64,000 nucleotides of DNA from Chlamydiae bacterium CG10_big_fil_rev_8_21_14_0_10_42_34 (lineage in GTDB: Bacteria > Chlamydiota > Chlamydiia > Chlamydiales > SM23-39): the NCBI GenBank assembly GCA_002773795.1, contig PFAD01000013.1, positions 1 through 64,000 of the forward strand. The letters are read 5' to 3'. The notes under the pieces are model-generated. The model was not told the origin of the DNA, did not search any database, and saw only the letters and a program-made list of their open reading frames with translations. The stretch's first letter is position 1. Each line of letters opens with the position of its first letter. Shown piece after piece: positions 11,387 to 34,016 of this stretch. The position numbers and the translations under genes were made by a program.

Positions 11387-11398
11387 TCTACTTGGCGC

Positions 11399-12418: not shown

Positions 12419-12426
12419 ATTACTCT

Positions 12427-16902: not shown

Positions 16903-17362
16903 GAATCGTTTCCTCATTTTCCAATTCTTGAATTGCTTGAAGCAATTCGCGAACATCTTTAAACCGTTTATAAACACAAGCAAAGCGGATATAGGCAACA
17001 ACATCCGTATCCTTCAAATGATGGATCACGATATCGCCTAATTCCCGGCTAGAGATCTCTCTGACCCCTTTAGCCATTAAGTCCGATTTAATTTTATAGG
17101 CAATAGCCCGGACTTGATCGTGGCTGACTCTTGTATGTCGGCAAGCTGAATCCATTCCTTGGATCAACTTTTCCTGATGAAAATCTTGGAAAGTGCCATC
17201 TCTTTTTTTCACCTGAAGACTCAAATCGACCGTTTCAAACGTCGTAAAACGTTTCATACATTGGCAACACTCACGCCTTCTGCGGATTGCATTGAGCTCT
17301 GCCGCATCGCGCGAGTCGGTTACCTTCGACTCTTCGTTGTTACAAAAAGGACATCTCACCAA
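16889..17362 (-). CDS. nrdR: Transcriptional repressor NrdR
   Basis: Represses ribonucleotide reductase genes in response to ATP/dATP. The zinc ribbon has C4, C7, C32 and C35 (VRCPFCNNEESKV and RRRECCQCMKRF), followed by an ATP-cone (~49-139: VKKRDGTFQDFHQEKLIQGM). The length of 157 is typical. It overlaps dksA by 14 bases and leads the minus-strand run nrdR-dksA-lspA and onward. Confidence 0.93.
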   Translation of the reverse strand: MVRCPFCNNEESKVTDSRDAAELNAIRRRRECCQCMKRFTTFETVDLSLQVKKRDGTFQDFHQEKLIQGMDSACRHTRVSHDQVRAIAYKIKSDLMAKGVREISSRELGDIVIHHLKDTDVVAYIRFACVYKRFKDVRELLQAIQELENEETIHATE

Positions 17363-18304: not shown

Positions 18305-19387
18305 ATGAAATTTTTTTTAACAACTTTTTTAGCAGCTTTAATTTCTTTATCTGCTTTTGATTCCACCATTCCTGTTCTACATCTTCCCGATTTTCATAAT
18401 GAAAACACACGCGATGATTTTCTAAAGACTTTAGAAAAAGCTGCGACAGAAGTCGGTTTTTTTGCGCTAACTGGAACTGGCATCGACACGGATCTTTTAG
18501 ACAACTCATACGAAAATATCGTCTCTTACTTTGCTCACAACTTTGAAGAAAAGATGGCCCTTAAAACTGCGGATGGTCAACGCGGCTATGTCCCCGGAGA
18601 GTCTGCAAAAGGGGAAAACATCATCGACTTTAAAGAGTTCTACCATGTTGGAAGAGAACTTTCTGAAGATGATCTACAAAGACTTAAGTACTGCAAAAAT
18701 GTATGGCCCGAAGGGTCTGATGACTTTAAAGTAGCGATGAACAACCTCTACGCTGCAATGGATACCTGTAAAGAAGCAGTCGGGGAGGCGTTCACAGAAG
18801 TCCTAAACCAACGCCCAGGCTACATCAATGAAATGATCCGTGAGGGCGACTGCCTTATGCGCGCCATCCATTATCCCGCAAACCCACCAGCGAACTCTAT
18901 TTGGGCAGCAGCTCATACCGACATTAATTTTTTCACCATATTACCGCGTTCAACAGCACGCGGACTTCAAGTGCTCAACCAAGAAGGCAACTGGATTGAT
19001 GTAATCGTTCCCGACGGAGCGTTCGTAATTAACTGTGGAGACATGCTTGAAAACCTAACAAACGGGTACTTCAAAAGCTCTGTGCATAGAGTGATCGATC
19101 CAGGAAACAGAGAAGAGCGCTATTCAGTCGTATTCTTTGTCCACCCAAGATCAGAAGATCGCCTCGATCCTCTTGAGGCTTACATTGAGAAAACAGGCGG
19201 CGTCAGAAAGTACGCAAATGTGAACCGAATCGAGCTTCTCGCAGAAAGACTCATCGACCTAGGTCTCGCATCAAACGGACTCATGGAGTTCTTTGTGAAT
19301 TCAGGGGCCATCGAAAGACTCAGAGAAGTCAATCGATTCAGCCCCAAAGCCGAAGAGGCTCTGCTCAAAGCAGGTTTCAGCTTCTAA
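18305..19387 (+). CDS. Exported 2-oxoglutarate/Fe(II) oxygenase, isopenicillin-N-synthase-like
   Basis: Residues 1-~18 form a signal peptide (MKFFLTTFLAALISLSA) placed before a normal DIOX_N domain beginning STIPVLHLPDF. The catalytic domain has Fe ligands His-x-Asp in AAHTDINFFTILP and a distal His in SSVHRVIDPG, then RYSVVFF, whose Arg and Ser bind 2-oxoglutarate. Total length is 360. Family members hydroxylate or desaturate small molecules, usually in the cytosol, so the signal peptide is unusual. GGAGG lies just before the ATG. It is 600 bases from the RiPP precursor but separated by a convergent gene; a link is possible but unproven. Confidence 0.82.
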   Translation: MKFFLTTFLAALISLSAFDSTIPVLHLPDFHNENTRDDFLKTLEKAATEVGFFALTGTGIDTDLLDNSYENIVSYFAHNFEEKMALKTADGQRGYVPGESAKGENIIDFKEFYHVGRELSEDDLQRLKYCKNVWPEGSDDFKVAMNNLYAAMDTCKEAVGEAFTEVLNQRPGYINEMIREGDCLMRAIHYPANPPANSIWAAAHTDINFFTILPRSTARGLQVLNQEGNWIDVIVPDGAFVINCGDMLENLTNGYFKSSVHRVIDPGNREERYSVVFFVHPRSEDRLDPLEAYIEKTGGVRKYANVNRIELLAERLIDLGLASNGLMEFFVNSGAIERLREVNRFSPKAEEALLKAGFSF

Positions 19388-19988: not shown

Positions 19989-20483
19989 ATGGCACAAATC
20001 AACCGAAATACCTGGGCGCGCATTTTGGCAAAAGCTTGGGCAGATGAAGATTTTAAAAAAGAGCTAAGTTCAAGACCGATTCAAGTGCTCAAAGAAAATG
20101 GGTACGATGTTCCTAAAGACATTAAGTGCACGATATTGGTAGACACACAGCAAGAAAAAAATTTAATCATACAGAGAGGGGCTACCCATTTTCAATATGA
20201 GGGGGGAGCTCTCAACAATGCATGGCTAAATTTGATAAAGAAAATCTATGCGGACGAGAATCTAAAAAAACAATTGATGGAAAATCCCTCAAAAATCTTG
20301 AGTGAAAACGGGATTCCTGTTTCGGAGAATCTGAATTATCACATTTATGAAGAGACTGAAAACCATATGTATTTAGTCATCCCAATCCCAGAAAATGAGG
20401 GGCTCTCAGAAGAAGATCTTGGAAAAATCAGTGGTGGGCTATCTGCCTGTGGAGGTTTTTGCACAGATTCCAGCTCTGGCTAG
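19989..20483 (+). CDS. NHLP-type TOMM/RiPP precursor peptide with duplicated leader
   Basis: The substrate of the modification operon, 164 residues. It contains two tandem nitrile-hydratase-like leader units: residues ~7-60 (TWARILAKAWADEDFKKEL) and ~76-137 (NAWLNLIKKIYADENLKKQL). The second is followed by the family-typical LSEEDLGKISGG. Cleavage after Gly-Gly would release a 14-residue core, LSACGGFCTDSSSG, in which 7 residues are Cys, Ser or Thr and can be cyclised. The ribosome binding site is a run of eight G (19980-19987) preceded by GA, one base before the ATG. The cyclodehydratase gene follows after 20 bases. Confidence 0.88.
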   Translation: MAQINRNTWARILAKAWADEDFKKELSSRPIQVLKENGYDVPKDIKCTILVDTQQEKNLIIQRGATHFQYEGGALNNAWLNLIKKIYADENLKKQLMENPSKILSENGIPVSENLNYHIYEETENHMYLVIPIPENEGLSEEDLGKISGGLSACGGFCTDSSSG

Positions 20484-20503
20484 ATGAAATAGATAGACAA
20501 TCA

Positions 20504-22780
20504 ATGAAAAATCCCCGCCTCACTCTTAAATCCTCTTTGCTCGTTCAAATTTACGACCCTGATGAAGTCGTTTTTTTTAATGATCTGGGGCCCGTTTATC
20601 GGGTGAAGGGCAAGCCTTACGTGCTCATTGCAAAGCTACTTGAGAAAAGCTCTTTGACAGCAGATCAGGTTGCATCGCAGCTAGAAAAATATTTCCCTCA
20701 AAAAACCCTACTTTATGCACTCTATCGACTAGAAAAAAGGGGGTTAATTGAACAGGCTCAAACAGTTTTTCCAAAAAACTTTTCTGCATTTTGCAACTTA
20801 TTAGGAAAAAGTCCCGAGGATGCCTACTGCAAGCTCCAAAAAATCAAAATAGATGTCTACGCTGTAGGAAATGTTCAAACAGAAATCTTCGAAAACGCAT
20901 GCCAGAGCATGTTTGTTCAGTGTCAATTGAAAAAAGTGCAAGCCTTTGCATCAGGTATTCATGAGCAAAAATCAGACGAAAAATTTTCACGTTCGCGAAA
21001 TGCTTTGAGCGTTGTGATCACCGATCACTATCGACACGAATCTATCAAAACTTTGCACGACAAATTTCTCCAAGAGCAACATCCTTGGGTGCTAGTTTGT
21101 CCCTCTGGGCCACAGATCTGGATAGGGCCTCTCTTCATTTTTCAAAAAACAAGTTGCTTCAAGTGTCTAAGTTATGCTCTGCAAATGAACCAAGTAGAGG
21201 AAATTCTTTTCGAAGAAAGGGCTCATAAAAGCTCACCGATCTCTATGCATACTGCGAATCTCCCCACTGCAGAGCCAATTGCAATCAACTTACTTGTTAA
21301 CGAACTTTTTAAGTGGATCATACTCGGAGAAAATGAACGTTTAGAAGGGAAAATGCTGACGCTGAATCTCCTTAGCTTTGAACTACAGTCTCACAAGGTA
21401 ATTCAACGCTGTGGATGCGCACCTACAGAATCTGTGCAATTAGGATCTAACCTTTCTGATTTTCAACTAGAAAAAGATGCGCCTAAAGAAATTCCTCCCG
21501 AAGTTACCTATAAAAAATATAAACATCTAATCAGTCCAATCACAGGAATTACAAATTTCTTAAATCCTATACACTCCCCAGAAAGCTCCTTATTTCACAA
21601 CTACTATGCTGGGATTAACTTAGCTGATTATGAATATCTTAAAAGAGCTCCCCTTTCAGATGGATGGAAAACCGCAGGAGGAGGAAAAGGTGCATCGGAC
21701 ATCCAAGCAAAAACCTCTTGTTTATGCGAAGCAATTGAAAGACATTCGGGGGTTTTTCAGGGAAATGAGCGAAGAATACAAGCTAGCTTTGAAGAACTAC
21801 AACAAACAGCTATCCACCCCTCATCAGTATTGCACTTTAGCGATACGCAATATCAAAGTAGAGAGCTATGGAATCAAACATGTGACCGATTTCACTTCAT
21901 CCCCACAAAATTTACATCCAATAAAAAAGTAGATTGGTCCCCAATATGGTCTTTAACTTACCAATGCTGGAAGTGGATACCAACCGCAATGTGTTATTAT
22001 GCATACCCTTTTATAGACAACGATCCATTTTGCCGAGGAGATTCTAACGGATGCGCTGCAGGAAACTCGATCACTGAAGCTGTTTTATCCGCCCTATTAG
22101 AGTTAATTGAGCGAGATTCGATTGCCCTTTGGTGGTATCCAAGAATCAAAAAAAGGGCGGTAGACATTCTCAGTTTTGAAGATCCCTATTTTTTTAAACT
22201 TGTTACATTCTATAAAAGCTCATTAAATAGAAATGTTTGGGCCTTAGATTTGACAACAGATCTCAATGTACCTACATTTGGAGCCATCTCAGCAGATCAG
22301 GAAGGAAGAAATATTATGTTTGGATTTGGAGCGCACCTAAATGCGCACCTTGCAATGAGACGAGCTTTAACAGAGATGAATCAATCTTATAGCATCTTTG
22401 AAAGTGTTAAAACCCCCAAAGCAGCGTCAATGCGAAAGACCTGGCTTACAAAAACTTCACTCGAAAACCAACCGTATTTAGTTCCATTACCTGACGCAGC
22501 ATTGAAAAAAAAGGACTATCCTTTTTACCCACAAGACGATTTTCAAAAAAACCTTCAAACCTGTCAAAAGATCGTCGAAGATCAAAAAATGGAGGTCCTT
22601 GTATTGAATCAAACGAGATCTTATATAGGCATGCCAGTTTGCCGTGTGATTGTCCCTGGATTACGTCATTTTTGGAATCGCTATGCAGATGGGCGCCTTT
22701 ATGATGTACCGATTAAGATGGGTTGGTTGAAAAACAAAACGAAAGAGGCTGATTTAAACCCTATCCCCATGTTTATATGA
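20504..22780 (+). CDS. Fused E1-like/YcaO TOMM cyclodehydratase (SagC-SagD fusion)
   Basis: Catalyses ATP-dependent cyclodehydration of Cys/Ser/Thr in the precursor to azolines. The start at ATG 20504 gives 758 residues. Residues ~1-310 form an E1/ThiF-like partner domain that binds the leader, with zinc-site-like C218-x2-C221 (TSCFKCLSYA) and C303-x-C305 (QRCGCAP). The YcaO domain (~345-758) has S405-x3-E409-x2-E412 (KTSCLCEAIERHSG) and N515-x2-A-A-G with E525, E533 and E536 (NSITEAVLSALLELIERD), the ATP/Mg-binding pattern of YcaO enzymes. It ends in NPIPMFI, like the proline-containing C termini of TOMM YcaO proteins. Confidence 0.9.
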   Translation: MKNPRLTLKSSLLVQIYDPDEVVFFNDLGPVYRVKGKPYVLIAKLLEKSSLTADQVASQLEKYFPQKTLLYALYRLEKRGLIEQAQTVFPKNFSAFCNLLGKSPEDAYCKLQKIKIDVYAVGNVQTEIFENACQSMFVQCQLKKVQAFASGIHEQKSDEKFSRSRNALSVVITDHYRHESIKTLHDKFLQEQHPWVLVCPSGPQIWIGPLFIFQKTSCFKCLSYALQMNQVEEILFEERAHKSSPISMHTANLPTAEPIAINLLVNELFKWIILGENERLEGKMLTLNLLSFELQSHKVIQRCGCAPTESVQLGSNLSDFQLEKDAPKEIPPEVTYKKYKHLISPITGITNFLNPIHSPESSLFHNYYAGINLADYEYLKRAPLSDGWKTAGGGKGASDIQAKTSCLCEAIERHSGVFQGNERRIQASFEELQQTAIHPSSVLHFSDTQYQSRELWNQTCDRFHFIPTKFTSNKKVDWSPIWSLTYQCWKWIPTAMCYYAYPFIDNDPFCRGDSNGCAAGNSITEAVLSALLELIERDSIALWWYPRIKKRAVDILSFEDPYFFKLVTFYKSSLNRNVWALDLTTDLNVPTFGAISADQEGRNIMFGFGAHLNAHLAMRRALTEMNQSYSIFESVKTPKAASMRKTWLTKTSLENQPYLVPLPDAALKKKDYPFYPQDDFQKNLQTCQKIVEDQKMEVLVLNQTRSYIGMPVCRVIVPGLRHFWNRYADGRLYDVPIKMGWLKNKTKEADLNPIPMFI

Positions 22781-22822
22781 GATTGTTTAGAGAAACCGTT
22801 TAAATCAAATCATGGAGGGTCC

Positions 22823-24208
22823 TTGTACATTCAATTACTGGCCGATTCAGAAGTTCATTTTCCATCTCCGGAAGAACTATCAGTAAAAAATCATACAAAA
22901 ATATTCAAAACAGAAAAGGCCGATCCTGCGCTGAAGCATTTGATGACTATGCTCCAAAAGGGATCGTTTGAAAGCGATTTACAAAATCAATGGCTTGATC
23001 GATCCTCTAACCTTCCCCGATTTTTCTACCTTTTAGAAACCCTAAGAAAAGAGTCTTTTTTATCCTTTACTTTATACGATGAGGACGGCCCCTTGGGCTC
23101 TTTCATTCCTCATAAAAACTGTCAGATTGAAACTAAACATTCTGAGCTATCTGAAGACTTTTTACAAAATTCAACCTTTCAACTTTCTCGTTTTGCCTTC
23201 ATTCGAAGGAAAGATAAATTTTTGATTTGTGAATCTCCCTTATCGAAAATGTTTATACAAATTTTAGAAAATCGCTTCCTCGATATTTTATTGGCTCTGA
23301 GTGAACCTACGAAGGTTCAACAACTTCAAAAAAAGCTACCAACGGTCTCAAAAGAGTGTTTAATTAAAGCACTTCAATTCCTTTACCAAAGTTCATTTTT
23401 AGCATCTGATGACGAAAAGTTGCCTACTTGGGACTTTCAAGATGCGCTCTTTCATACAAGAAGCAGAAGAGGAAGACACAGTGACCCAACCGCAACAATG
23501 TTTCGTTTTTTGGACACAATCCCACCGCTCCCTCCTATTAAAAAATTCCCAAACGCAAAAGATTCAGATTGGATTCCCCTCGCTAAGCCCGACATAGACT
23601 TACTCATGCAAAAAGACCTCCCCTTTTCTTACGTACTTGAAACGCGCCGCTCCATTCGCACGCAAGGTCAGACCTTTATTTCATTGGAGCAACTGGGAGA
23701 ATTTTTGTATCGAGTTGCTCGCATTAAAGGAGTGAAAGAGGCCAACCACTACGAAGCCACCCGAAGACCCTATCCAGGAGGAGGGGCATGCTATGAACTA
23801 GAAATATATCCATTGATTCATCAGTGCTCAGGAATTTCCTCCGGGCTCTACTACTATCATCCAAAAAACCATTCCTTATTACTCTTAACAAAAGAGTCTC
23901 AGCATACAAATAAGATCCTTTATGCTGCATCAGCAAGTATTAACAGCAAAGAACCCTCCCAAATCCTATTTTTAATTGCTGCGCGCTTTGGACGTATGAA
24001 TTGGAAGTATCAGTCTATGGCTTATGCGACGATCATGAAAGATACAGGAGTCTTAATGCAAACGATGTACCTTGTTGCAACTGCTATGGGACTTGCCCCA
24101 TGTTCTGTAGGCAATGGCGATTCAGATCTATTCAGCAAAATCACTAAAATCCCCTATTTTGAAGAAACCACAGTTGGAGAATTTATCCTTGGATCAAAAA
24201 CAACATGA
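22823..24208 (+). CDS. SagB/ThcOx-type FMN-dependent azoline dehydrogenase
   Basis: Oxidises azolines to aromatic thiazoles/oxazoles. The start is a TTG at 22823 behind GGAGGG; no in-frame ATG occurs for 42 codons. Of 461 residues, ~1-260 are the variable SagB N-terminal region. The nitroreductase domain (~270-460) has the FMN-binding VLETRRSIRTQGQTFISLEQ, the family motif RRPYPGGGACYELEIYPLI, TGVLMQTMYLVATAMGLAP and a terminal GEFILG. Its place directly after the cyclodehydratase is the usual TOMM order. Confidence 0.88.
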   Translation: MYIQLLADSEVHFPSPEELSVKNHTKIFKTEKADPALKHLMTMLQKGSFESDLQNQWLDRSSNLPRFFYLLETLRKESFLSFTLYDEDGPLGSFIPHKNCQIETKHSELSEDFLQNSTFQLSRFAFIRRKDKFLICESPLSKMFIQILENRFLDILLALSEPTKVQQLQKKLPTVSKECLIKALQFLYQSSFLASDDEKLPTWDFQDALFHTRSRRGRHSDPTATMFRFLDTIPPLPPIKKFPNAKDSDWIPLAKPDIDLLMQKDLPFSYVLETRRSIRTQGQTFISLEQLGEFLYRVARIKGVKEANHYEATRRPYPGGGACYELEIYPLIHQCSGISSGLYYYHPKNHSLLLLTKESQHTNKILYAASASINSKEPSQILFLIAARFGRMNWKYQSMAYATIMKDTGVLMQTMYLVATAMGLAPCSVGNGDSDLFSKITKIPYFEETTVGEFILGSKTT

Positions 24209-25064
24209 TATCCCCTGGAAACATTTAATAGACCCCGCCCAATTTCCAAAATTGGGCTTTTCTACCCTCCCTATTTCTATCGACGAATCCCAAATCCACG
24301 AAGCTTATCAGGCTTTAAACCAAATACTTGAGCTACGCGCTGGCAATCTATACAGCAAAGAGTTTGAACAGATCGATGAAATCATCGCTTTTTTTGTGAA
24401 AAACATTGCCCTAGTGTCCGTCGAATTTGATCAACCAAAAAAACCCGCCATTTTTTTTAAATATCTTACCGAAGATGCGGACTACTACGCAGCAAAAAAT
24501 ATGATTCAACATAACATATCATCATTCCATTATATTTCCGGCCTTTACAATTACATAATTCAAAACCAACAAGAAATAAAAATAAAATCCACTCCAATCA
24601 TCTCTTTCTTGAAAATTTTAGACCAAATCACCTCTCATGTTCATAAAAATCTGGAAGGCTTTATAGAACAGATTCAAAAAAGGATGAAATGCTCTATCTC
24701 ATTAAAAATTTGGCGACATGAATATAGGCAAAATCAAGGACTTTTGCTTCCCATGCATTTTGATCGATCTGCTTTTACTGTCCTCGTCCACACACTAAAT
24801 CCGGGGGCAGAGTGTTTGCAGATTTATCCGAATAAAGGGTTGCGCGAGGAAAAAGAAATATTTAGCAAATCACGTCCATTTCCCTTAGAAAAGTCTGACT
24901 TTCCTCTTTTGATTGCGGGCCAATATGCGAAAGAACTCTTTAATATTGAACCCACTCCCCATTACTTAAATGCAAATAGTGACTCAAAATCAGACAAAAA
25001 AAAGCACGCAAGATACTCCGTAGTCTTTTTTATTGGACGCCATAACAATTCTCCGATCATATAA
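24189..25064 (+). CDS. Putative 2OG-Fe(II) oxygenase-like tailoring enzyme in the RiPP operon
   Basis: A 291-residue protein without obvious family name. The C-terminal half has a 2-oxoglutarate/Fe(II) oxygenase pattern: His-x-Asp in LLPMHFDRSAFTVLVHTLNP, a later His in EPTPHYLNA, and Arg-x-Ser in ARYSVVFFIGRHN, the last matching the other oxygenase at 18.3 kb in its RYSVVFF. A TTG at 24189 with GGAG 9 bases upstream is the likely start, overlapping SagB by 20 bases; an ATG at 24114 would need a 95-base overlap. It may hydroxylate the peptide. The assignment rests on these motifs alone. Confidence 0.6.
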   Translation: MDQKQHDIPWKHLIDPAQFPKLGFSTLPISIDESQIHEAYQALNQILELRAGNLYSKEFEQIDEIIAFFVKNIALVSVEFDQPKKPAIFFKYLTEDADYYAAKNMIQHNISSFHYISGLYNYIIQNQQEIKIKSTPIISFLKILDQITSHVHKNLEGFIEQIQKRMKCSISLKIWRHEYRQNQGLLLPMHFDRSAFTVLVHTLNPGAECLQIYPNKGLREEKEIFSKSRPFPLEKSDFPLLIAGQYAKELFNIEPTPHYLNANSDSKSDKKKHARYSVVFFIGRHNNSPII

Positions 25065-25262
25065 GTAGAAGATAGAAAATAATGAACCTATTTAAACACT
25101 AAACTTTTTGCCCTCAAATTCACCACTTTAACTCTTCATAAATTTCTTCGGACATATTAATTCTCTTTACGCGATAGAATCATTTCCTTTTTTCAAACAA
25201 CCTATCTCTGCCAGCCAAACCATTTGCAATTTATTTCCCAAACCAATACACAAATAATTAAG

Positions 25263-26201
25263 ATGGAACCTACTGACAAGAAGCGTCTAGCAAAAATCAC
25301 ATCCCTAGAAAACCTAGAAAAAATGCTTACCGTCGTTAGCATAAGAGGTTGGTCTTTATTGCTCTTTTTTATCCTCCTTATTACTAGCATTATTATTTGG
25401 TCCGTTGTAGGAAAAATCCCCATTACAACTTCTGGAGAGTCGATCACCTTAGATCCAAACAACACCTTTGCCATTCGGAGCGAAACAAGCGCATTTGTAA
25501 AACAAATTCTGAAAATTGGTGGTGAAAAAGTTCAAAAAGGGGAAATTCTTGTTATTTTAGACAGCACAGAGTTGTCCACCAAAATAAACGACACCAAAAA
25601 CAACATTTTATTCTTGGAAAAAACGGGCTCAGAAAATTCGGAGAAGCTTTTTTTACTGAAAAACTCCTTAAAAGACCTTCAAAAACAAGCAAAAGAGCTT
25701 GTTATCAAATCACCTGCAGATGGGCTTGTTGTATGGGTTGATTTAAACGTTGGAGATCAAGTTGTCCCTAATGATCTTTTGCTCACCGTTCAAGGCAACT
25801 CCTCACCCGACACAATTGAAATTTTCGCCTTTATCCCCCTTAGCTCAGGACAACTCGTTCAACCTGGGATGAAAACAAGGTGTTCTCTCAATATTTACCG
25901 CTCAGAAAAGTATGGTCTCGTTCGAGGAACCGTTCAACGTGTGATGCCTTATCCAATCAGCGCTGACGAGTATTTCATGCAAAAAATCCCTTCTTCGCGA
26001 CTCAAAGAACACTTGCTCGGCGGGGATAATATTTTAGTTGTGGTTAAACCTGATCTAGATCCAAACACCTATTCTGGGTTCAACTGGACCTCAAAAAACA
26101 GCCCCCATTCCAAAATAGAACCTCTCCTGCTAGGAACCACCCAAATTATTTTGGACGAAATCAAGCCAATTTCTTATATCATCCCCCGATTTGGAAATTA
26201 A
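25263..26201 (+). CDS. NHLM-type membrane fusion (HlyD-like) secretion protein
   Basis: The periplasmic adaptor of the bacteriocin exporter. Of 312 residues, a single membrane segment (~36-58: SLLLFFILLITSIIIW) is followed by a biotinyl-lipoyl-like beta domain (ETSAFVKQILKIGGEKVQKG), a short coiled coil (NILFLEKTGSENSEKLF) and a second lipoyl half (IKSPADGLVVWVDLNVGDQV). The hairpin is much shorter than in HlyD, as is usual for NHLM secretion proteins. It abuts the C39 transporter gene. The start at 25263 is preferred over a TTG at 25224. Confidence 0.85.
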   Translation: MEPTDKKRLAKITSLENLEKMLTVVSIRGWSLLLFFILLITSIIIWSVVGKIPITTSGESITLDPNNTFAIRSETSAFVKQILKIGGEKVQKGEILVILDSTELSTKINDTKNNILFLEKTGSENSEKLFLLKNSLKDLQKQAKELVIKSPADGLVVWVDLNVGDQVVPNDLLLTVQGNSSPDTIEIFAFIPLSSGQLVQPGMKTRCSLNIYRSEKYGLVRGTVQRVMPYPISADEYFMQKIPSSRLKEHLLGGDNILVVVKPDLDPNTYSGFNWTSKNSPHSKIEPLLLGTTQIILDEIKPISYIIPRFGN

Positions 26202-28388
26202 ATGAGATTTTTTTCAAGAAATTCGTCTAAAAACAAAAGAGTCAAAACCCCAACAATTATCCAATTCCAAGCAATTGAATGTGGTGCTGTTTCTTTGTCC
26301 ATTGTTTTGGGCTATTTCGGCAAGTTTGTCCCTATTGAAGAAGTAAGAGTTGAGTGTGGAGTTTCTCGCGATGGGAGCAATGCCTGGAACATCATTCAAG
26401 CTGCCAAGAAATATGGGCTGGATGGGAAAGGAGAAAAGCGAACAGCAGAAGAATTAAAGGAGATCAAGGTTCCTGCTATCTTACTTTGGAAATTTAATCA
26501 CTTTCTTGTATTAGAAGGCATCCAAGGAGATCAAGTCTTTCTTAACGACCCTAGCACTGGGCCCAGGAGTCTTTCCTTTGAACAGTTTCAATCCGATTAT
26601 TCGGGAGTTGCACTCGTTTTTGAAAAAACCGATCAATTCCAAGAAGGAGGAAAGCCCCTCTCGCTATTTCATCACTTACATGAGAGGCTTAAAGAAATCC
26701 CAGGATCCATATCCTATCTCGTCCTCATAAGCCTTTGCCTTCTTCTTCCAGGCTTTGCAATGCCCGCCTTTTTAATGGCCTTCATCAATACCTTTTTCGG
26801 CCAATATGTGCTTCCCTGGAAATGGGAATTTATGGGCGCTATTTTTCTTACAGCAATCCTTGCTGGCAGCATGGCTTTAACTCGAGGATTTGTTTTAAAC
26901 CACTTAAACAGAAAGCTTTCCCTTTCTTTTTCAAGCCATTTTCTTTGGCACTTGCTCCGCCTTCCCATGAATTTTTATACGCAACGATATACCGCCGAAA
27001 TTGCCTATAGAACATCTCTCAACACAGCCGTTGCGCAAACACTTACGGGGCCTGTTACTACGACATTTATTCAACTCCTCCTCATTATTTTTTATGCCAT
27101 CATCATGTTTAGTTACGACATCGCAATCGCCTCGATAGGAATCATATCAGGAACTATTAACTTAATACTCATGAACTCCCTTTTCAAATCGAGAAAAAAT
27201 GCCTATGCAGCTCTTCAACAGGACATTACAAGATCTCTAACAGAATCTCTTGGAGGACTTAAAAACATCGAAACAATCAAGGCTAAAGGAATTGAATCTG
27301 ATTTTTTCACAAAGTGGTCTGGCTACTACACAAAAAAAATGAATTCCCTGCAAAGCCTTGGGAAAAAAGATGTTATTTTAACAACAGTTCCCATCGTTTT
27401 TCAATTTATGACCCTGACACTGCTTTTAGGAATTGGATCGATTCGAATTATTGAGGGTAGCTTAACGATTGGCAAATTGATGGCATTGCAGCTGCTCATG
27501 ACGAATTTCTTACTTCCCATCAATAATTTTGTGACATTGAGTTCTCTAATCCAAAATATGAAGCTTAATATCGAAAGGTTAAATGATGTTTTAAAAAATG
27601 ACGCCGACCAAATCTATCTTACAAGAAGACTGAAGCCGAAAGAGACTCACTTAGACAAGCTTTCTGGATCTTTGGAATTTCGCAACGTTTCCTTTCGTTA
27701 CGCCCCTCTTTCGCCTCCTGTCATTCAAAATTTAAGCTTTAAAATCGAACCAGGGCAAAGACTTGCCCTTGTTGGCCCCACGGGCAGTGGCAAATCAACA
27801 GTTGCCAAACTTGCCACTGGGCTTTTCTATCCAACTGAAGGGGAAATTCTATATGACAACGTCCCTTTAAAAGACATTTCAATCGATCTGTTTAGAGACT
27901 CAGTTGCAACAGTAAGTCAAGACATCTTTTTATTCACAGGGTCAATCCGCGAAAACATTACTCTTTGGAACGCAAAAGTACCTGACGAGCTATTAGTGGA
28001 AGCTGCCACTGACGCCTCGATACATGAAGATATCCTCATGAGACCTAAAGGATATGATGGAGAACTTGCAGAAGGGGGAAATAATCTAAGCGGCGGTCAA
28101 AGACAGCGCCTAGAAATAGCCAGAGCGCTCCTTTACAACCCTTCCATTATCATTCTCGACGAAGCAACGAGCGCACTTGATACAAAAACAGAAGAGGTCG
28201 TTTTAGAGCGAATTCGCCAGAGAGGTTGTTCTGCATTAATGATTGCACATAGGCTAAGTACCATTCGAGATTGCAATGAGATCATAGTTTTGGAAAAGGG
28301 CGTGACAGTCCAAAGAGGGTCACACCAGCAACTGAAAAATGAGGAAGGTCTCTACCAAACACTCATCGAAAGTGAGACAGGCTCATGA
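26202..28388 (+). CDS. NHLM bacteriocin ABC transporter with C39 leader peptidase
   Basis: Cleaves the precursor after Gly-Gly and exports the product. The N-terminal C39 peptidase domain (~17-150) has the catalytic triad C27 (QFQAIECGAVSL), H100 (KFNHFLVLEG) and D116 (LNDPSTG). A six-helix transmembrane domain (~165-455) precedes the ATPase (~490-728): Walker A GPTGSGKST, signature LSGGQRQRLEIARALL and Walker B IIILDEATSALD. Of 728 residues in total, all catalytic motifs are intact. It overlaps the second transporter gene by 4 bases. Confidence 0.92.
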   Translation: MRFFSRNSSKNKRVKTPTIIQFQAIECGAVSLSIVLGYFGKFVPIEEVRVECGVSRDGSNAWNIIQAAKKYGLDGKGEKRTAEELKEIKVPAILLWKFNHFLVLEGIQGDQVFLNDPSTGPRSLSFEQFQSDYSGVALVFEKTDQFQEGGKPLSLFHHLHERLKEIPGSISYLVLISLCLLLPGFAMPAFLMAFINTFFGQYVLPWKWEFMGAIFLTAILAGSMALTRGFVLNHLNRKLSLSFSSHFLWHLLRLPMNFYTQRYTAEIAYRTSLNTAVAQTLTGPVTTTFIQLLLIIFYAIIMFSYDIAIASIGIISGTINLILMNSLFKSRKNAYAALQQDITRSLTESLGGLKNIETIKAKGIESDFFTKWSGYYTKKMNSLQSLGKKDVILTTVPIVFQFMTLTLLLGIGSIRIIEGSLTIGKLMALQLLMTNFLLPINNFVTLSSLIQNMKLNIERLNDVLKNDADQIYLTRRLKPKETHLDKLSGSLEFRNVSFRYAPLSPPVIQNLSFKIEPGQRLALVGPTGSGKSTVAKLATGLFYPTEGEILYDNVPLKDISIDLFRDSVATVSQDIFLFTGSIRENITLWNAKVPDELLVEAATDASIHEDILMRPKGYDGELAEGGNNLSGGQRQRLEIARALLYNPSIIILDEATSALDTKTEEVVLERIRQRGCSALMIAHRLSTIRDCNEIIVLEKGVTVQRGSHQQLKNEEGLYQTLIESETGS

Positions 28389-31285
28389 ACCATTCAACTC
28401 AAATCATCGAATTTTTCAAAAGTCAAGCCACTCAACAAACCATGAATGCAGGGATCCCCTTTCCTTTGAATCAAAAAGGGGTAGTTTTTGCAATTGAAAA
28501 AGGGGCTCTTAATCTTTTTATAAAAGATCAAGAGCACTCCCAGCCTGTTTTCTTGGCCCACCTCAGTGAAGGTCTCCTATTTAACTATCACTCAGACGAT
28601 GAAAAGCAAACCCATGAAATTTTTGCACTCAGTGAGTTAGATTCCCCTATTTTCTCTATGACAGAAGAGAGCCTCACCCAAATATTAGGCACAAATCAAG
28701 AGCTTCAAGAGCCCTTTTCATTTTATTTGGAAAAATGGATTCATCTCATTGCTCGAAATCTTACAAAACTATTTTCACACGAACCAGATCTTGTGATTTT
28801 TCCCGATCAAAGCTTGGTTTTAACCCAAAATCAAACCCTTTCTGTAAAAAAAGTTGCTCATACTTTAGGAAAAGAAAAACTTTCTTGGATCCGCCCTCTT
28901 GAAGCAAACCTATTTTTTTATGGAAATGACGCTTACACACTCACCCCTTCTGAAGACTACTTTCCTCTCACGCCCCATTTTTGGTTTCAAGGAAAAGAGG
29001 ATGTAAAGGTTGAAGCGATTGATACCTTAAGCTTGATTCACAAACAAAAATGGATTTCTTCCCTTCAGACTTTCCACCGACTCTTTTATCAATATGTTCC
29101 TATCTACCTACAAAAAAAGTATCAAATTGAACACACCGCTTTAGAAAACCGCAAAGATGAAGAGACAAAAAACTTGACTCTTGCAATTGAAGAGATGGAA
29201 TCAGTTGTCCAGACTTCTTTGGAAGCAGGGTCTGCAAAAACAGAGCTGGGGAAAATATGTCAAATTCTTGGCCACCATTTGAAAGTTCAGTTCACAATCC
29301 CTTCTACAAGCGAAGAGATTCTTAAAGATCATGATCAATACCTCGATTTGATCTGTGAAGCCTCTCATATCCGCAAAAGAAAAGTCCTTTTCACACCAAA
29401 CTGGTGGCAGGAAGACCATGGGCCACTTCTTGCTTTTTATAAAGAAGGCCCCATTGCCCTGATTAAAAAAGGCAACTATCGAATGCACGATCTAAAAAGC
29501 ATTCAACCTATTACAGCTGCCATTGCAAAAGATTTGCAACCCTTTGCTTACATGTTTTACCCCCCCTTGCCTGAGGATCTTACTCAAGGAAAAGAGCTCA
29601 TTTATTTATCTTTAGGCAAATATAGAAAGTATTACATTTATTTGGCACTTTTCAGCTTAGCCGGAACTTTTTTTGCTTTTTTCCCATCTATTGCAACCAA
29701 ACTATTGTTTAATTATGCCGTTCCTGAAAATTCTCATTCTCTTACTTACTACTTGCTTTTGGGACTCCTATTTTCAACAATTGGGATCTCCTTTTTCTAT
29801 TTTTTAAAAAACTTCATATTTTTGAAAATCAAAGGGCTTACTATTCACTTTGTCCAAACGTCTATTTGGGATCGGATTCTAAAGTTATCTCCTGCTTTTT
29901 TTCGGAAAAATTCGGTTGGGAACTTCTTTTGGAAGCTTCAGACAATCGAAACAATAAATGATCTATTGGGAGACAGCATAGCGATCCCTTTTTTGAGAGG
30001 AATTTCCTCCTTTTTTTTCCTGATCATCATGTTTGTTTTTTCCCCACTATTAACGTTGATTGCCTTTGGATTTTCTTTAGTTGGACTCGCCCTTACAATT
30101 TTTTGCGCATCATTCATGATGAGTTATTTTAGAAAATCCTTTGAGCTACAAAAAAAGCTACAAGGGATGCTCATTCAAATGATTGGCGGCGTAGGGAAAC
30201 TGAGAGAAGCTGGCGCCGAAAAAAGTGCCTTTGCAAACTGGGCTCATTCATTTACACTGCAAAATATTTTAGACTTAAAAATCTCTAACCTAAAAACAAT
30301 TGTGTTCTCTCTTGATAAAGTGTTACCCATTTTATCATTTGGAGGAGTCTATTTGGCCCTTTTTGAATGGATTGGAGTTCAGGGAATTAGCTTGCCCAAT
30401 TTTTTAGCCTTTAACATTGCGTTTGGAAGCTATATGTCGAGTATTTATCCTCTATATAACGCGATTATTCAAATGGTTAAAATCATCCCTCTATGGGAAA
30501 ACACAAAAGAGCTCATTGAAGTACCGCCTGAAGAGACCGAAGAAAAAATTACTCCCGGAAAACTTACTGGAGAAATTCGGCTCAACAATGTGGTCTTTAG
30601 CTACGCACCTGAGCTTCCACCTGTTTTAAATGGGATTAATATAACTGTTCAACCAAATGAATTTGTGGGGATTGTTGGTCAATCTGGATGTGGCAAATCA
30701 ACGCTAATCCGTCTTCTTTTGGGATTTGAAACACCTCAATCCGGAGCCATATACTACAATGGCAAAGACCTAGAAAAGCTTGACCTTAGAATGGTCCGCA
30801 AGCAGCTCGGAGTGGTTCTTCAGGCTGGCACTATGATGGCAGGCCCACTCTATGAGAACTTAGCCTGTGGAGGTCTTTATAACGAAGGGCAAATTAAGGA
30901 GGCTCTTCGCCTATCTGGTTTAGACGAGCTCTTAGAAGATCTTCCCATGGGACTTCAGACCTTTGTGCAAATGGATGGAGTGAATCTTTCGGGTGGTCAA
31001 AAGCAGCGCGTGCTCCTTGCGAGGGCCCTTCTTGGATCGCCACCAATCCTTATTTTTGATGAGGCAACATCAGCTCTTGACAATCGAACACAAAAAAAGA
31101 TTAGCAGCAATATTGAAGAGCTCAACGTGACCCGTATTGTGATTGCGCAAAGGCTCTCAACATTGCAGAACGCCGACCGCATTTATGTATTAAGCGAGGG
31201 GAAAGTGGTTCAAGAAGGGACCTATGAGGAGCTTGGAGGACAAGCGGGGCTTTTTGCCGAAATGCTGGCTCGCCAAAATGTATAA
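28385..31285 (+). CDS. NHLM bacteriocin ABC transporter, second ATP-binding subunit
   Basis: The partner half of the exporter, 966 residues. The first ~410 residues lack a peptidase and form the long soluble region typical of this subfamily. A transmembrane domain (~415-690) is followed by an ATPase with Walker A GQSGCGKST, signature LSGGQKQRVLLARALL and Walker B ILIFDEATSALD. The ATGA overlap with the C39 transporter implies coupled translation and a heterodimer. It is the last gene of the plus-strand operon. Confidence 0.9.
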   Translation: MNHSTQIIEFFKSQATQQTMNAGIPFPLNQKGVVFAIEKGALNLFIKDQEHSQPVFLAHLSEGLLFNYHSDDEKQTHEIFALSELDSPIFSMTEESLTQILGTNQELQEPFSFYLEKWIHLIARNLTKLFSHEPDLVIFPDQSLVLTQNQTLSVKKVAHTLGKEKLSWIRPLEANLFFYGNDAYTLTPSEDYFPLTPHFWFQGKEDVKVEAIDTLSLIHKQKWISSLQTFHRLFYQYVPIYLQKKYQIEHTALENRKDEETKNLTLAIEEMESVVQTSLEAGSAKTELGKICQILGHHLKVQFTIPSTSEEILKDHDQYLDLICEASHIRKRKVLFTPNWWQEDHGPLLAFYKEGPIALIKKGNYRMHDLKSIQPITAAIAKDLQPFAYMFYPPLPEDLTQGKELIYLSLGKYRKYYIYLALFSLAGTFFAFFPSIATKLLFNYAVPENSHSLTYYLLLGLLFSTIGISFFYFLKNFIFLKIKGLTIHFVQTSIWDRILKLSPAFFRKNSVGNFFWKLQTIETINDLLGDSIAIPFLRGISSFFFLIIMFVFSPLLTLIAFGFSLVGLALTIFCASFMMSYFRKSFELQKKLQGMLIQMIGGVGKLREAGAEKSAFANWAHSFTLQNILDLKISNLKTIVFSLDKVLPILSFGGVYLALFEWIGVQGISLPNFLAFNIAFGSYMSSIYPLYNAIIQMVKIIPLWENTKELIEVPPEETEEKITPGKLTGEIRLNNVVFSYAPELPPVLNGINITVQPNEFVGIVGQSGCGKSTLIRLLLGFETPQSGAIYYNGKDLEKLDLRMVRKQLGVVLQAGTMMAGPLYENLACGGLYNEGQIKEALRLSGLDELLEDLPMGLQTFVQMDGVNLSGGQKQRVLLARALLGSPPILIFDEATSALDNRTQKKISSNIEELNVTRIVIAQRLSTLQNADRIYVLSEGKVVQEGTYEELGGQAGLFAEMLARQNV

Positions 31286-31401
31286 ATTCCCCATTCAAAA
31301 AATGGGGAGATTCATGCGATTTCATAGTAGATTTTTTTACATCTTTAGATCTTTTGCTTTTACTCTCATTGTACCTTTGAAAAAATGAGTGTATTTGCCG
31401 C

Positions 31402-31674
31402 TTATCCTCCGCAGAGCCACTGAGCTTGAGCGGCGGCAATTTTTTTCAATTCTTCTTCAGACATATTTTTTGCATTGATCGGCACCTTGTGGATGACGAG
31501 ATGCAAAGTATCTCCTGTCTCTTCATGAACATGGATCTTGGCATGTGCTGGGACGTTAAATCCCGCCTCTTTTAGCGCAGCTTCTGGGTTTTTCAGCATC
31601 TTTTGTTTAAAAGATGGATCTTTCCATGCGAGCATGTTAATTTTCGTCTCGATTTCTTCTCTTGATTTTTTCAT
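31402..31674 (-). CDS. Second NHLP-type RiPP precursor with minimal core
   Basis: A 90-residue precursor with one nitrile-hydratase-like leader (INMLAWKDPSFKQKMLKNPE, ALKEAGFNVP, IHVHEETGDTLHLVIHKVP) and the motif MSEEELKKIAAAQAQWLCGG at the C terminus. It lacks the usual Gly-Gly before the core. A cut after Ala-Ala would leave a very short tail with a single Cys. The start at 31674 has AGGGGA upstream and forms an ATGA overlap with the preceding gene. It faces the exporter operon. It could be a second substrate, or a leader-like protein with another role. Confidence 0.78.
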   Translation of the reverse strand: MKKSREEIETKINMLAWKDPSFKQKMLKNPEAALKEAGFNVPAHAKIHVHEETGDTLHLVIHKVPINAKNMSEEELKKIAAAQAQWLCGG

Positions 31675-32138
31675 AGTTTCCCCTTGTTTGTGCACCATTT
31701 ACTTATGTCTAAAGCATGTCCATAAGACTCTTGAAATTTTTCCTCGTAAGAGCGCATCGTTTCTACATACAGATCTGCAAGATGCTCCTCTTCCTCTTTC
31801 GTTCCGGAAGAAGGCTCATGATGCATATATTTGCCAAAAATACGATCGCAATCTTGCATGTATTTTCGGGTATGCAGAATATGGTCATGCCAAACTTCAT
31901 CAATCTCAAGAGTAGGAACCCTTACTAATTTGGGATCCAAAATCTTAAGCGCTAAAAAGTTTTTGTACTTTCGGACTGTGTCTTTAGCCTCCGCTTCATC
32001 CCAGTTTTTCTTACCTACAAGCCTTTTCACAATATATTGTAGATCTAGGTTTTGAATATATTGGATGGGATCTTCCGCCTTATTTTTCATTAAATACTTC
32101 TTCAGAATGAATAAATGTTCTATTAGGTCCATATACAT
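31671..32138 (-). CDS. GRDP-like (glycine-rich domain-containing protein-like) small protein
   Basis: A 155-residue protein. Its centre, VPTLEIDEVWHDHILHTRKY followed by MQDCDRIFGKYMHHEP, resembles the conserved core of the plant GRDP/DUF1399-like family, with a WHxH motif that could bind metal. Biochemical function is unknown. It is translationally coupled to the second precursor through ATGA, which ties it to the RiPP locus as a possible partner, processing factor or immunity protein; that role is inference. No ribosome binding site is evident at the 32138 start. Confidence 0.65.
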   Translation of the reverse strand: MYMDLIEHLFILKKYLMKNKAEDPIQYIQNLDLQYIVKRLVGKKNWDEAEAKDTVRKYKNFLALKILDPKLVRVPTLEIDEVWHDHILHTRKYMQDCDRIFGKYMHHEPSSGTKEEEEHLADLYVETMRSYEEKFQESYGHALDISKWCTNKGKL

Positions 32139-33360: not shown

Positions 33361-33378
33361 TTCTCCTTTGCCAAAGTC

Positions 33379-33511: not shown

Positions 33512-33540
33512 AAAAAAACCCCAGCGAAAGCTGAGGTTTT
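33512..33540. terminator. Bidirectional terminator-like hairpin
   Basis: A-tract, stem cc-cagc / gctg-gg with a gaaa loop and one internal mismatch, then T-tract. It could end transcripts from the tRNA-Ser gene coming from the right. Confidence 0.5.
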
Positions 33541-33543
33541 GCT

Positions 33544-33560: not shown

Positions 33561-33806
33561 ATGCCCTCTCGCAACGGGCTTCGCCCGTGTCTTCCGGGCC
33601 GGCGATTTTTTTCGGGGTCAACCGAAAAAAATTCGAAAGACTTTAGCCTTCGATGCTGCTTTAGCTGCACCCTGAAAGGGCGTAGGTTCGCCTCGAACCG
33701 AAGTCAATCCCTCTACGAAAAGCCAAGCAGCTCCACCCCAAACAACGAACGCGTTGTTCGGGGACCCCGGAGGGCTTTTCTTTTCTCCGCTTTTTCGAAG
33801 AAAAAT

Positions 33807-33893
33807 CGGAGAGAGTGGGATTCGAACCCACGAAACGTTTACACGTTTACACGCTTTCCAAGCGTGCTCCTTCAGCCACTCGGACATCTCTCC
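33807..33893 (-). tRNA. tRNA-Ser(GGA)
   Basis: A full cloverleaf reads on the minus strand: 7-bp acceptor GGAGAGA/TCTCTCC with discriminator G, anticodon loop TTGGAAA giving GGA, a long variable arm as expected for Ser, and the T-arm GTGGGTTCGAATCCCAC. CCA is not encoded. Its 3' end faces the accessory region that holds the RiPP locus. Confidence 0.95.
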
Positions 33894-34016
33894 ATAAAAT
33901 ATGGGACTAGATTCTAATCAATTCATTGTTAACTCACAAGATTTTCATTTACCCACTTCTTAAAACTCCCGCCTTGCATTATATGGGGGGAAAAGCGATA
34001 GTTTTAAGGGTGCAAT

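What the first reader, a model, noticed from the sequence alone, without database searches (positions are those of the whole stretch)
19989..32138. Complete TOMM/NHLM-type RiPP biosynthesis and export locus in a chlamydial genome
Seen: precursor with Cys/Ser/Thr-rich core, fused E1-like/YcaO cyclodehydratase with intact ATP-binding residues, SagB-type dehydrogenase, an oxygenase-like gene, a membrane fusion protein, a C39 peptidase-ABC transporter with intact Cys-His-Asp, a second ABC transporter, and a second precursor coupled to a WHxH protein. Known: cyclodehydratase plus dehydrogenase is the set that makes thiazoles/oxazoles, and NHLM transporters export such peptides. Chlamydiae are obligate intracellular and not known to me as producers of modified peptides. 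The product could act on the host cell, on competing symbionts, or as a signal. All key motifs are intact, so the locus looks functional.
Basis: partly seen in the sequence, partly recalled or inferred. Interest (0 to 1): 0.95.

Follow-up and report, generated by a model that had tools for sequence, protein, structure and literature searches.

The report
Chlamydial azole-peptide island with second module
A genome of the phylum that contains Chlamydia carries a complete gene set predicted to make and likely export a small azole-ringed peptide, and beside it a separate two-gene unit in which a small histidine-rich protein sits with a cysteine-tailed peptide and would act on it, a pairing that recurs in eight chlamydial genomes and may mark an undescribed kind of peptide modification.

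Summary
Window 19989-31285 encodes an NHLP-type precursor with two tandem leaders and the tail LSACGGFCTDSSSG, a LynD-like fused E1-YcaO cyclodehydratase, a SagB dehydrogenase, a probable 2OG-Fe(II) oxygenase, and an HlyD/C39-ABC/ABC exporter of NHLM type. It is native: it fills a variable site between nrdR and tRNA-Ser whose flanks keep gene order in a same-genus genome. It is not unique: 22 of 232 chlamydial genomes have a YcaO protein, and three fetched loci have the full set. RiPP-like clusters in Chlamydiae are already in print. The second precursor is not part of the same pathway. With its neighbour, a WHxH/HH protein (Pfam GRDP-like), it belongs to an independent two-gene module: the protein occurs in 9 of 232 chlamydial genomes, 8 times beside an NHLP precursor. 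Those precursors group on one branch and all nine end in cysteine-bearing tails; five of the eight genomes have neither a YcaO nor an MNIO enzyme. Outside Chlamydiae 40 of 69 such proteins carry two or more cysteines in their own tail, and nine lie in operons with a radical SAM protein. I infer that WHxH proteins are a new RiPP-associated, probably metal-binding component. No product has been shown.

The parts
16889..17362 (-). nrdR-like gene (name from my reading), last conserved gene of the left flank
   Evidence: 87% identical orthologue at the same place in same-genus G199
18305..19387 (+). 2OG-Fe(II) oxygenase with DIOX_N domain, in the variable region left of the cluster; not assigned to the pathway
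   Evidence: PF03171 77 bits, PF14226 78 bits; no match in G198 and G199
19989..20483 (+). precursor 1 (NHLP1): two tandem NHLP leaders, then tail LSACGGFCTDSSSG after ISGG
   Evidence: TIGR03793 two stretches, 103 bits; sequence
20439..20480 (+). predicted core peptide LSACGGFCTDSSSG, 7 of 14 residues Cys/Ser/Thr
   Evidence: read from sequence; cut after Gly-Gly is inferred
20504..22780 (+). fused E1-like/YcaO cyclodehydratase, LynD/TruD type (ORF from 20459)
   Evidence: TIGR03604, TIGR03882 over cut-off; LynD E=2.2e-147 end to end
22823..24208 (+). SagB-type FMN dehydrogenase
   Evidence: TIGR03605 over cut-off; CyaGox E=4.5e-66, WKY motif kept
24189..25064 (+). probable 2OG-Fe(II) oxygenase (ORF from 24114), HxD...H...R kept
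   Evidence: no own Pfam match; relative in G187 passes PF03171; H215, D217, H283, R300 invariant in a four-row alignment; fold model failed, pLDDT 35
25263..26201 (+). HlyD-type membrane fusion protein
   Evidence: TIGR03794 153.1 bits, cut-off 156.2
26202..28388 (+). C39 peptidase-ABC exporter (NHLM ABC1)
   Evidence: TIGR03796 906 bits over cut-off, PF03412 105 bits over 2-132 of 133; bacteriocin transporter 4ry2 E=2.5e-98 over 17-719
28385..31285 (+). second ABC permease/ATPase (NHLM ABC2)
   Evidence: TIGR03797 686 bits, cut-off 709
31402..31674 (-). precursor 2 (NHLP2), tail IAAA-AQAQWLCGG, partner of the WHxH protein
   Evidence: TIGR03793 66 bits; on the WHxH-linked branch of the leader tree
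31671..32090 (-). WHxH...Y..DC...FG.Y.HH.P protein, GRDP-like domain (ORF from 32138)
   Evidence: PF07173 25.9 bits, cut-off 22.7; kin in 9 of 232 chlamydial genomes; model pLDDT 81
33806..33894 (-). tRNA-Ser(GGA), right edge of the variable site
   Evidence: ARAGORN; same tRNA beside the znuA-like gene in G198 and G199

Best explanation
This island in a chlamydial genome carries a complete set of genes predicted to turn Cys (and possibly Ser/Thr) residues of the tail LSACGGFCTDSSSG into azole rings and likely to cut and export the product, beside a separate two-gene module whose small histidine-rich partner would act on a cysteine-tailed peptide. Steps, all inferred from family membership: (1) the tandem NHLP leader of precursor 1 is bound by the E1-like part of the fused cyclodehydratase; (2) the YcaO part uses ATP to cyclise Cys, perhaps Ser/Thr, to azolines; (3) SagB oxidises azolines to azoles with FMN; (4) the 2OG-Fe(II) oxygenase may hydroxylate or otherwise oxidise the peptide; (5) the C39 domain cuts after Gly-Gly and ABC1/ABC2/HlyD export the mature peptide. 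(6) Separately, the WHxH/HH protein, probably through a His-rich metal site, modifies or loads the Cys of its own NHLP partner, encoded with a 4-base overlap. Shown: gene content, motifs, recurrence, association. Not shown: any product, activity or target.
For: Family hits and alignment to LynD, TruD, CyaGox and a C39 bacteriocin transporter. NHLP + E1-YcaO + SagB + HlyD + ABC1 + ABC2 stand together in three other chlamydial contigs, of G141, G111 and G047. Tails of precursors within 7 kb of a fused E1-YcaO hold Cys in 13 of 16 frames against 4 of 23 linked to neither partner (Fisher p 1.8e-4). WHxH: kin in 9 of 232 chlamydial genomes, 8 with an NHLP overlapping or up to 389 bases away on the same strand; 9 of 9 linked precursors have a Cys tail, four of them with CCP; the nine linked leaders are one side of a branch, support 89/81, 0 of 500 shuffles as clustered. 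Five of the eight genomes have neither YcaO nor an MNIO enzyme, and no RiPP-type enzyme showed among the neighbours scanned there. Outside Chlamydiae 40 of 69 WHxH proteins have 2 or more Cys after the HHxP motif, against 0 of 8 chlamydial ones of the same scan. Nine proteobacterial loci place a WHxH protein with a KCPQ(V/A/L)CPC tail before a TauD oxygenase, a radical SAM protein and a UvrA-like ABC protein.
Against: No mass spectrum, expression or enzyme data exist here. HlyD and ABC2 fall just under their curated cut-offs. The oxygenase has no family match of its own, a weak relative in G198 has no 2OG match either, and its fold model failed. 3 of 16 YcaO-linked tails lack Cys. For the WHxH module: the fold search found no known relative, so enzyme activity has no structural support; one of nine chlamydial WHxH genes (G112) has no NHLP beside it; none of 69 other loci has an NHLP within 4 kb and 22 of 69 have no Cys in the tail; the first His of HH is replaced in 14 of those 69 and Asp80/Cys81 vary (DS, DT, TC); in G144 an MNIO operon lies directly upstream and could be the modifying enzyme there.
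Confidence: 0.78

Rival explanations
1. One pathway: E1-YcaO and SagB modify both precursors, and the WHxH protein is only an accessory of that machinery.
For: Both precursors lie in one island and both tails hold Cys. In G179 both systems also occur in one genome.
Against: Six of eight genomes with the WHxH-NHLP pair have no YcaO protein (they are 58-99% complete). The leaders separate by partner, including within G000 and G179. The pair is on the opposite strand from the operon.
Confidence: 0.15
2. The WHxH protein is not an enzyme but a metal- or peptide-binding chaperone, carrier or immunity protein for the cysteine peptide; in other bacteria its domain serves as a folded leader for the Cys tail fused to it.
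For: Fused WHxH-Cys-tail proteins in 40 of 69 loci, nine of them followed by a radical SAM protein and a TauD oxygenase that could be the real modifying enzymes. In G144 the pair sits beside an MNIO operon. Small all-helical model without a clear match to a solved fold.
Against: Trp67, His68, His70, His90 and His91 are invariant in 21 of 21 aligned rows; outside that set the second His of HH is kept in 69 of 69 and the first in 55 (WHxH itself was a search condition). Five chlamydial genomes with the pair have no YcaO and no MNIO enzyme, and none of their scanned neighbours is a RiPP enzyme, so an enzyme would be missing.
Confidence: 0.4
3. The island is decayed or silent and makes nothing.
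For: Only 1 of 3 genomes of the genus has YcaO; island GC 0.396 against 0.432 around it.
Against: Nine intact reading frames, motifs kept, relatives with the same gene set in other families.
Confidence: 0.1
4. Contamination or misassembly placed a foreign bacterial cluster in a chlamydial bin.
For: Lower GC of the island; YcaO absent from two same-genus genomes.
Against: Flanks on the same contig (86,902 bases) keep chlamydial gene order on both sides against G199. The identical protein is listed for two contigs, the longest of 123,866 bases, thus not this one alone. The branch that holds it also holds other chlamydial rows.
Confidence: 0.02

Closest known systems
LynD / TruD fused cyclodehydratases of cyanobactin pathways
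   Same: E1-like plus YcaO in one chain, aligned end to end (E=2.2e-147 and 1.5e-146); Cys-to-azoline chemistry expected (recalled)
   Different: NHLP leader instead of a PatE-type precursor; no subtilisin-type protease among the 13 ORFs scanned; export by an NHLM-type set
NHLP/NHLM systems of Haft et al. 2010 (PMC2887384)
   Same: nitrile-hydratase-like leader beside peptidase-ABC exporter, with or without TOMM enzymes (passage read)
   Different: tandem leader, extra 2OG-type oxygenase, and a second NHLP paired with a WHxH protein
SagB-type azoline oxidases (CyaGox, 5lq4; McbC, 6gos)
   Same: aligned with CyaGox over residues 111-458, Lys-Tyr motif kept
   Different: only a 125-residue stretch resembles McbC (E=1.4e-5)
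RiPP-like and proteusin clusters reported in Chlamydiae (PMC9666466, PMC13229535)
   Same: antiSMASH calls of RiPP-type clusters in the phylum (passages)
   Different: the passages read describe no YcaO/SagB azole set and no WHxH partner; the rest of the papers and their tables were not read
MNIO (DUF692) / bufferin operons (PMC12452194, abstract start in listing only)
   Same: Cys-modifying RiPP systems; MNIO genes in 78 of 232 chlamydial genomes and beside one WHxH-NHLP pair, in G144
   Different: the WHxH protein has no match to PF05114, and 7 of the 8 genomes with the pair have no MNIO
GRDP-like proteins (PF07173)
   Same: domain match over cut-off for the window protein; 14 of 14 aligned homologues match at E up to 1
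   Different: no RiPP link in the papers searched; here a stand-alone protein of about 125-140 aa beside an NHLP precursor
Borosins (enzyme fused to its own core; split forms exist), recalled, no call
   Same: by analogy only: a domain found fused to its presumed target tail in some taxa and split from it in others
   Different: no sequence relation tested; chemistry unknown here

Membership tests
TOMM / linear azole-containing peptide (LAP) locus | YcaO cyclodehydratase with E1/ocin-ThiF-like partner domain | tested here: met
   PF02624 313 bits, TIGR03604 268 (cut-off 219), TIGR03882 80 (cut-off 37)
TOMM / linear azole-containing peptide (LAP) locus | FMN azoline dehydrogenase (SagB family) | tested here: met
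   TIGR03605 170 bits, cut-off 78; CyaGox alignment
TOMM / linear azole-containing peptide (LAP) locus | precursor with leader and Cys/Ser/Thr-rich core | tested here: met
   19989-20483, tail LSACGGFCTDSSSG
TOMM / linear azole-containing peptide (LAP) locus | azole-bearing product | not testable with these tools
   needs mass spectrometry
NHLP/NHLM export system | NHLP leader peptide | tested here: met
   TIGR03793 over cut-off for both precursors
NHLP/NHLM export system | C39 peptidase-ABC subunit (TIGR03796) | tested here: met
   906 bits, cut-off 853
NHLP/NHLM export system | second ABC subunit (TIGR03797) and HlyD subunit (TIGR03794) | tested here: inconclusive
   best family in both cases but 686 of 709 and 153.1 of 156.2 bits
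Cyanobactin locus | PatA/PatG-type subtilisin proteases and PatE-type precursor | tested here: not met
   no subtilisin hit among the 13 ORFs of 17.6-33.6 kb that were scanned with Pfam; precursor is of NHLP type
2OG-Fe(II) oxygenase (24189-25064) | profile match to a 2OG family | tested here: inconclusive
   no match for the window protein; its G187 relative 25.3 bits, cut-off 23; its weak G198 relative none
2OG-Fe(II) oxygenase (24189-25064) | HxD...H iron triad and 2OG-binding Arg | tested here: met
   H215, D217, H283, R300 invariant in the four-row alignment, two rows of which are the same protein; role of the motif recalled
GRDP-like (PF07173) | domain match over curated cut-off | tested here: met
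   25.9 bits, cut-off 22.7
DUF692/MNIO Cys-modifying enzymes (considered for the WHxH protein) | match to the family profile or fold | tested here: inconclusive
   no hit to PF05114 in the Pfam scan of 14 members, while the MNIO of G144 is found by the same library with 347 bits; fold search gave no clear match to anything

The most novel reading that the evidence does not exclude
WHxH/HH (GRDP-like) proteins are a new class of metal-dependent RiPP enzymes that modify cysteine tails, existing in two architectures: fused to their own Cys-rich tail in many bacteria (a self-modifying precursor) and split into an enzyme plus an NHLP precursor in Chlamydiae. The chlamydial island would then hold two chemically different RiPP pathways side by side, the second one previously unrecognised.
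Probability: 0.35. Interest if true: 0.85.

Novelty: new variant of a known kind. Interest (0 to 1): 0.64.

Why it matters
Obligate intracellular bacteria are expected to shed costly special metabolism, yet a 1.68 Mb chlamydial genome keeps a complete azole-peptide pathway with dedicated export, and the same gene set stands in genomes of two other chlamydial families. The product may act on the eukaryotic host, on rival symbionts or as a signal, and the core is short and well defined, so it can be tested directly. The WHxH-NHLP pair adds a small protein family without known function to the RiPP field, with a genetic link to cysteine peptides in two unrelated settings.

Tried and rejected

Counts and dropped rows: of 64 NHLP rows, 60 were given to the tail count (the four weakest, mostly fragments, left out), 8 of them had no locus held, and the other 52 collapsed to 48 reading frames. 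In that count one row called 'neither' (G229, CCP tail) ends 63 bases from its contig end and may be a WHxH-linked one; it was left in 'neither'. The Fisher values ignore relatedness. The leader tree used 32 leaders from the larger fetched loci only, 87 columns, bootstrap not settled; window NHLP1 and the G005 leader sit on long branches. The E1-YcaO tree used 60 rows (14 chlamydial, 13 named and 33 unnamed of the 107 hits) and a short search. The 69 other WHxH loci are those that two peptide patterns found; one of them (L197) is titled only 'bacterium'. In one search only the four best candidates of each genome were scored.

Literature: what I say is not in print rests, full text of an open-licence library only; supplementary tables of PMC9666466 could not be read and may list this kind of cluster. 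Papers seen: search listings and passages; none was read whole. The roles of the LynD, SagB, C39, 2OG and borosin motifs, the layout of bufferin operons, and the gene names nrdR and znu are recalled or my reading.


Full report
WHAT IS THERE. Window 19989-31285 on the plus strand is a tight run of seven genes, several of them overlapping or abutting. In order: precursor 1 (NHLP1), fused E1-like/YcaO protein, SagB dehydrogenase, oxygenase-like protein, HlyD, C39-ABC, second ABC. On the minus strand lie a WHxH protein (31671-32090) and, four bases into its end, precursor 2 (NHLP2, 31402-31674). Pfam and NCBIfam scans of nine proteins place precursor leaders, YcaO, E1-like, SagB and C39-ABC over curated cut-offs; HlyD and ABC2 are best matched by the NHLM families but lie slightly under their cut-offs (153.1 of 156.2; 686 of 709). 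The oxygenase-like protein matches no family.

ENZYMES. The E1-YcaO protein aligns with LynD from end to end (E=2.2e-147) and with TruD (1.5e-146). The stretches LCEAxERxSG and ELxERD (ATP-site role recalled) are kept, and the C-terminus NPIPMFI is like the NPFPMWM of cyanobacterial relatives. SagB aligns with CyaGox over 111-458 (E=4.5e-66), including the Trp-Lys-Tyr motif. ABC1 aligns with the C39 bacteriocin transporter 4ry2 over 17-719, thus including the peptidase domain. The oxygenase (291 or 316 aa) has one clear relative in 232 chlamydial genomes, 33% identical, in G187, and two weak ones in G198 and G029 (E near 1e-3), and none but itself among 5.8 billion proteins at the sensitivity of that search. 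The G187 protein passes the 2OG-FeII_Oxy cut-off (25.3 of 23 bits); the weak G198 one matches no 2OG family. His, Asp, His and Arg of the 2OG motif are invariant across the small alignment. In the G187 protein the Arg lies ten residues after the distal His; the window protein has a short insertion there (read). I call it a probable 2OG-Fe(II) oxygenase.

PRECURSOR 1. It holds two NHLP leaders in tandem (20013-20171 and 20229-20438), then ISGG and the 14-residue tail LSACGGFCTDSSSG. Tandem leaders also occur in G141 (beside E1-YcaO, SagB and NHLM genes) and twice in G177 (without YcaO). Cutting after Gly-Gly is inferred from C39 peptidases.

NATIVE ISLAND. G000 is 1.68 Mb, 97.6% complete, 1% contaminated, with one YcaO gene. 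In same-genus genome G199 the nrdR-like gene and its neighbours on the left, and tRNA-Ser(GGA) and the znu-like genes on the right, keep the window's order; between them G199 has about 3.65 kb without similarity to the window where the window has 16.4 kb. In G198 the right side is kept as well. The cluster (19989-31285) has GC 0.396 against 0.432 for the window outside the variable stretch. So the cluster sits in a variable site beside a tRNA gene of a chlamydial chromosome.

SPREAD. YcaO occurs in 22 of 232 genomes of the phylum (9 of 137 good-quality ones), NHLP leaders in 32 of 232 (22 over the cut-off), C39-ABC over cut-off in 23 of 232. Fourteen fused E1-YcaO proteins longer than 650 residues, the window's included, come from 11 genomes. 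NHLP, E1-YcaO, SagB, HlyD, ABC1 and ABC2 stand together in G141, G111 (contig 193, where ABC2 runs off the end) and G047. In the E1-YcaO tree 11 of the 14 chlamydial rows lie in a 28-row set with unnamed sequences and no named cyanobacterium (SH-aLRT 96); the other three form their own branch. Most of the named relatives among the hits are cyanobacterial.

TAILS FOLLOW PARTNERS. Among 48 chlamydial NHLP frames that I could read, Cys is present in the last 20 residues in 13 of 16 within 7 kb of a fused E1-YcaO, 9 of 9 near a WHxH gene, and 4 of 23 near neither (Fisher p 1.8e-4 and 2.5e-5 against 'neither'; relatedness not corrected). This fits cysteine as a modified residue in both linked groups.

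THE SECOND MODULE. The WHxH protein belongs to the GRDP-like domain family (PF07173). Its kin occur in 9 of 232 chlamydial genomes. In eight of the nine an NHLP gene is adjacent on the same strand: overlapping in six, 16 bases away in G005, 389 in G199. The ninth, G112, has none that I could find. Of the eight, only G000 and G179 also have YcaO and only G144 has an MNIO enzyme, so five have neither: G199, G148, G005, G136, G130. G005, G130, G136, G144 and G148 show no NHLM-type C39-ABC (best E-values of 1e-73 to 1e-89, the level of ordinary ABC proteins; four candidates a genome scored; G130 and G144 are only about 60% complete). Thirty proteins near the pair in seven genomes were scanned with Pfam: no RiPP-type enzyme in G148, G005, G136, G130 or G199. 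In G144 a same-strand run of a 120 aa Cys-bearing protein, an MNIO enzyme (PF05114, 347 bits), a DUF2063 protein and a DoxX protein ends about 250 bases before the NHLP gene, a bufferin-like operon by recalled layout. The linked precursors end in tails such as AQAQWLCGG, GCTATCGLA, GEPQEASCCPKPI and GELQEAKCCPKSPI. In a tree of 32 leaders the nine WHxH-linked ones, window NHLP2 among them, are one side of a branch (89/81, not starred; 0 of 500 shuffles as clustered). Window NHLP1 is on the other side with the YcaO-linked and unlinked leaders, on a long branch. So the window's two precursors most likely belong to two systems.

WHxH OUTSIDE CHLAMYDIAE. A pattern scan of one genome per species found 77 loci, 69 of them not among the chlamydial ones: Pseudomonas, Xenorhabdus, Moraxella, cyanobacteria, Legionellales, Patescibacteria and others. 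None of the 69 has an NHLP within 4 kb (some loci are cut by contig ends). But 40 of the 69 proteins have two or more Cys after the HHxP motif, 7 have one and 22 none, whereas the eight chlamydial ones of the scan have none (the window's own has one). Nine loci share an operon on one strand: WHxH protein with tail KCPQ(V/A/L)CPC, TauD-family oxygenase, radical SAM protein, UvrA-like ABC protein. The families were identified on two of the nine: TauD and radical SAM on L161 and L181, SPASM over its cut-off and UvrA-like on L181 alone; the radical SAM proteins score best with PapB and DynA peptide maturases, below those models' cut-offs. Thus the same domain is tied to cysteine peptides in two separate settings, split in Chlamydiae and fused elsewhere. 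In 21 aligned rows Trp67, His68, His70, His90, His91 and Pro93 are invariant, Asp80 and Cys81 are not. In the 69 other proteins the second His of HH is always kept, the first in 55. A model with pLDDT 81 is all-helical; no solved fold resembles it clearly. I infer a His-rich metal site. Whether the protein is an enzyme, a chaperone or a folded leader is open; I lean slightly to a modifying role because no other known RiPP enzyme accompanies the pair in five chlamydial genomes, but the carrier/chaperone reading is nearly as good.

KNOWN OR NEW. Dharamshi et al. 2022 report BGCs, RiPP-like ones included, as widespread across Chlamydiae, most with unknown functions (PMC9666466, passages), and a proteusin cluster is predicted for Endochlamydia hydrae (PMC13229535, passages). 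Haft et al. 2010 describe NHLPs beside peptidase-ABC cassettes, with or without TOMM enzymes (PMC2887384, passage). The searches showed no paper on a chlamydial YcaO/SagB azole pathway, nor a RiPP link of the GRDP-like domain; supplements and most subscription journals were not covered. The azole part is thus a new member of a known kind with unusual details (tandem leader, orphan oxygenase). The WHxH-NHLP pair may be something new.

VERDICT. Real, native, most likely functional by its intact frames; product, activity and target unknown. Interest 0.64 overall, higher if the WHxH protein proves to be a modifying enzyme.

Noticed in passing
L096 (G129:C3), 5065-11486: Three NHLP precursors with GGE(S/A)xGxSCGCI tails, a LanM-like protein (DUF4135 plus LANC_like) and E1-YcaO in one run: a possible hybrid lanthipeptide/azole locus in a chlamydial genome.
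   Followed up: partly
L161, L181 and seven further loci (L151, L168, L174, L175, L185, L186, L189): Operon of WHxH protein with KCPQ(V/A/L)CPC tail, TauD oxygenase, radical SAM protein and UvrA-like ABC protein in Proteobacteria; looks like an undescribed RiPP-type locus, the UvrA-like protein perhaps for self-protection.
   Followed up: partly
L132 (G144:C21), 10540-14217: A WHxH-NHLP pair directly downstream of a bufferin-like run: 120 aa Cys-bearing protein, MNIO (PF05114), DUF2063, DoxX. It hints at metal handling, but it is one case of eight.
   Followed up: partly
phylum search, 232 genomes: MNIO (PF05114) enzymes occur in 78 of 232 chlamydial genomes, one of them (G141:C1:31907-32692) right beside the SagB/E1-YcaO genes of L091.
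   Followed up: no
L100 (G104), L101 (G073), L102 (G170): E1-YcaO plus SagB preceded by a 107-129 aa gene instead of an NHLP (the L100 one matches DUF6176); these three E1-YcaO form their own branch.
   Followed up: partly
L092 (G179:C72): Two E1-YcaO genes on opposite strands flank a single SagB gene, each with its own NHLP precursor upstream.
   Followed up: no
L112 (G228:C2, 950000-969000), 6996-14952: Three short paralogous ORFs with AAGGKGPCS(N/S)P motifs beside a 434 aa YcaO-like protein and a peptidase-ABC/ABC pair: a different peptide locus.
   Followed up: no
window 18305-19387: A 2OG-Fe(II) oxygenase with DIOX_N domain, without a match in both same-genus genomes, lies in the same variable site left of the cluster; a role in the pathway is not excluded.
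   Followed up: partly
window 32425-33621 minus: Protein without Pfam match, with four further matches in the same genome, four in G198 and one weak one in G199: a lineage-specific family.
   Followed up: no
P0120, P0121: WHxH homologues from unnamed metagenome sources with Cys-rich C-terminal extensions, e.g. SCAGSKCTNCCGNTCGRTCSNCTVK.
   Followed up: partly
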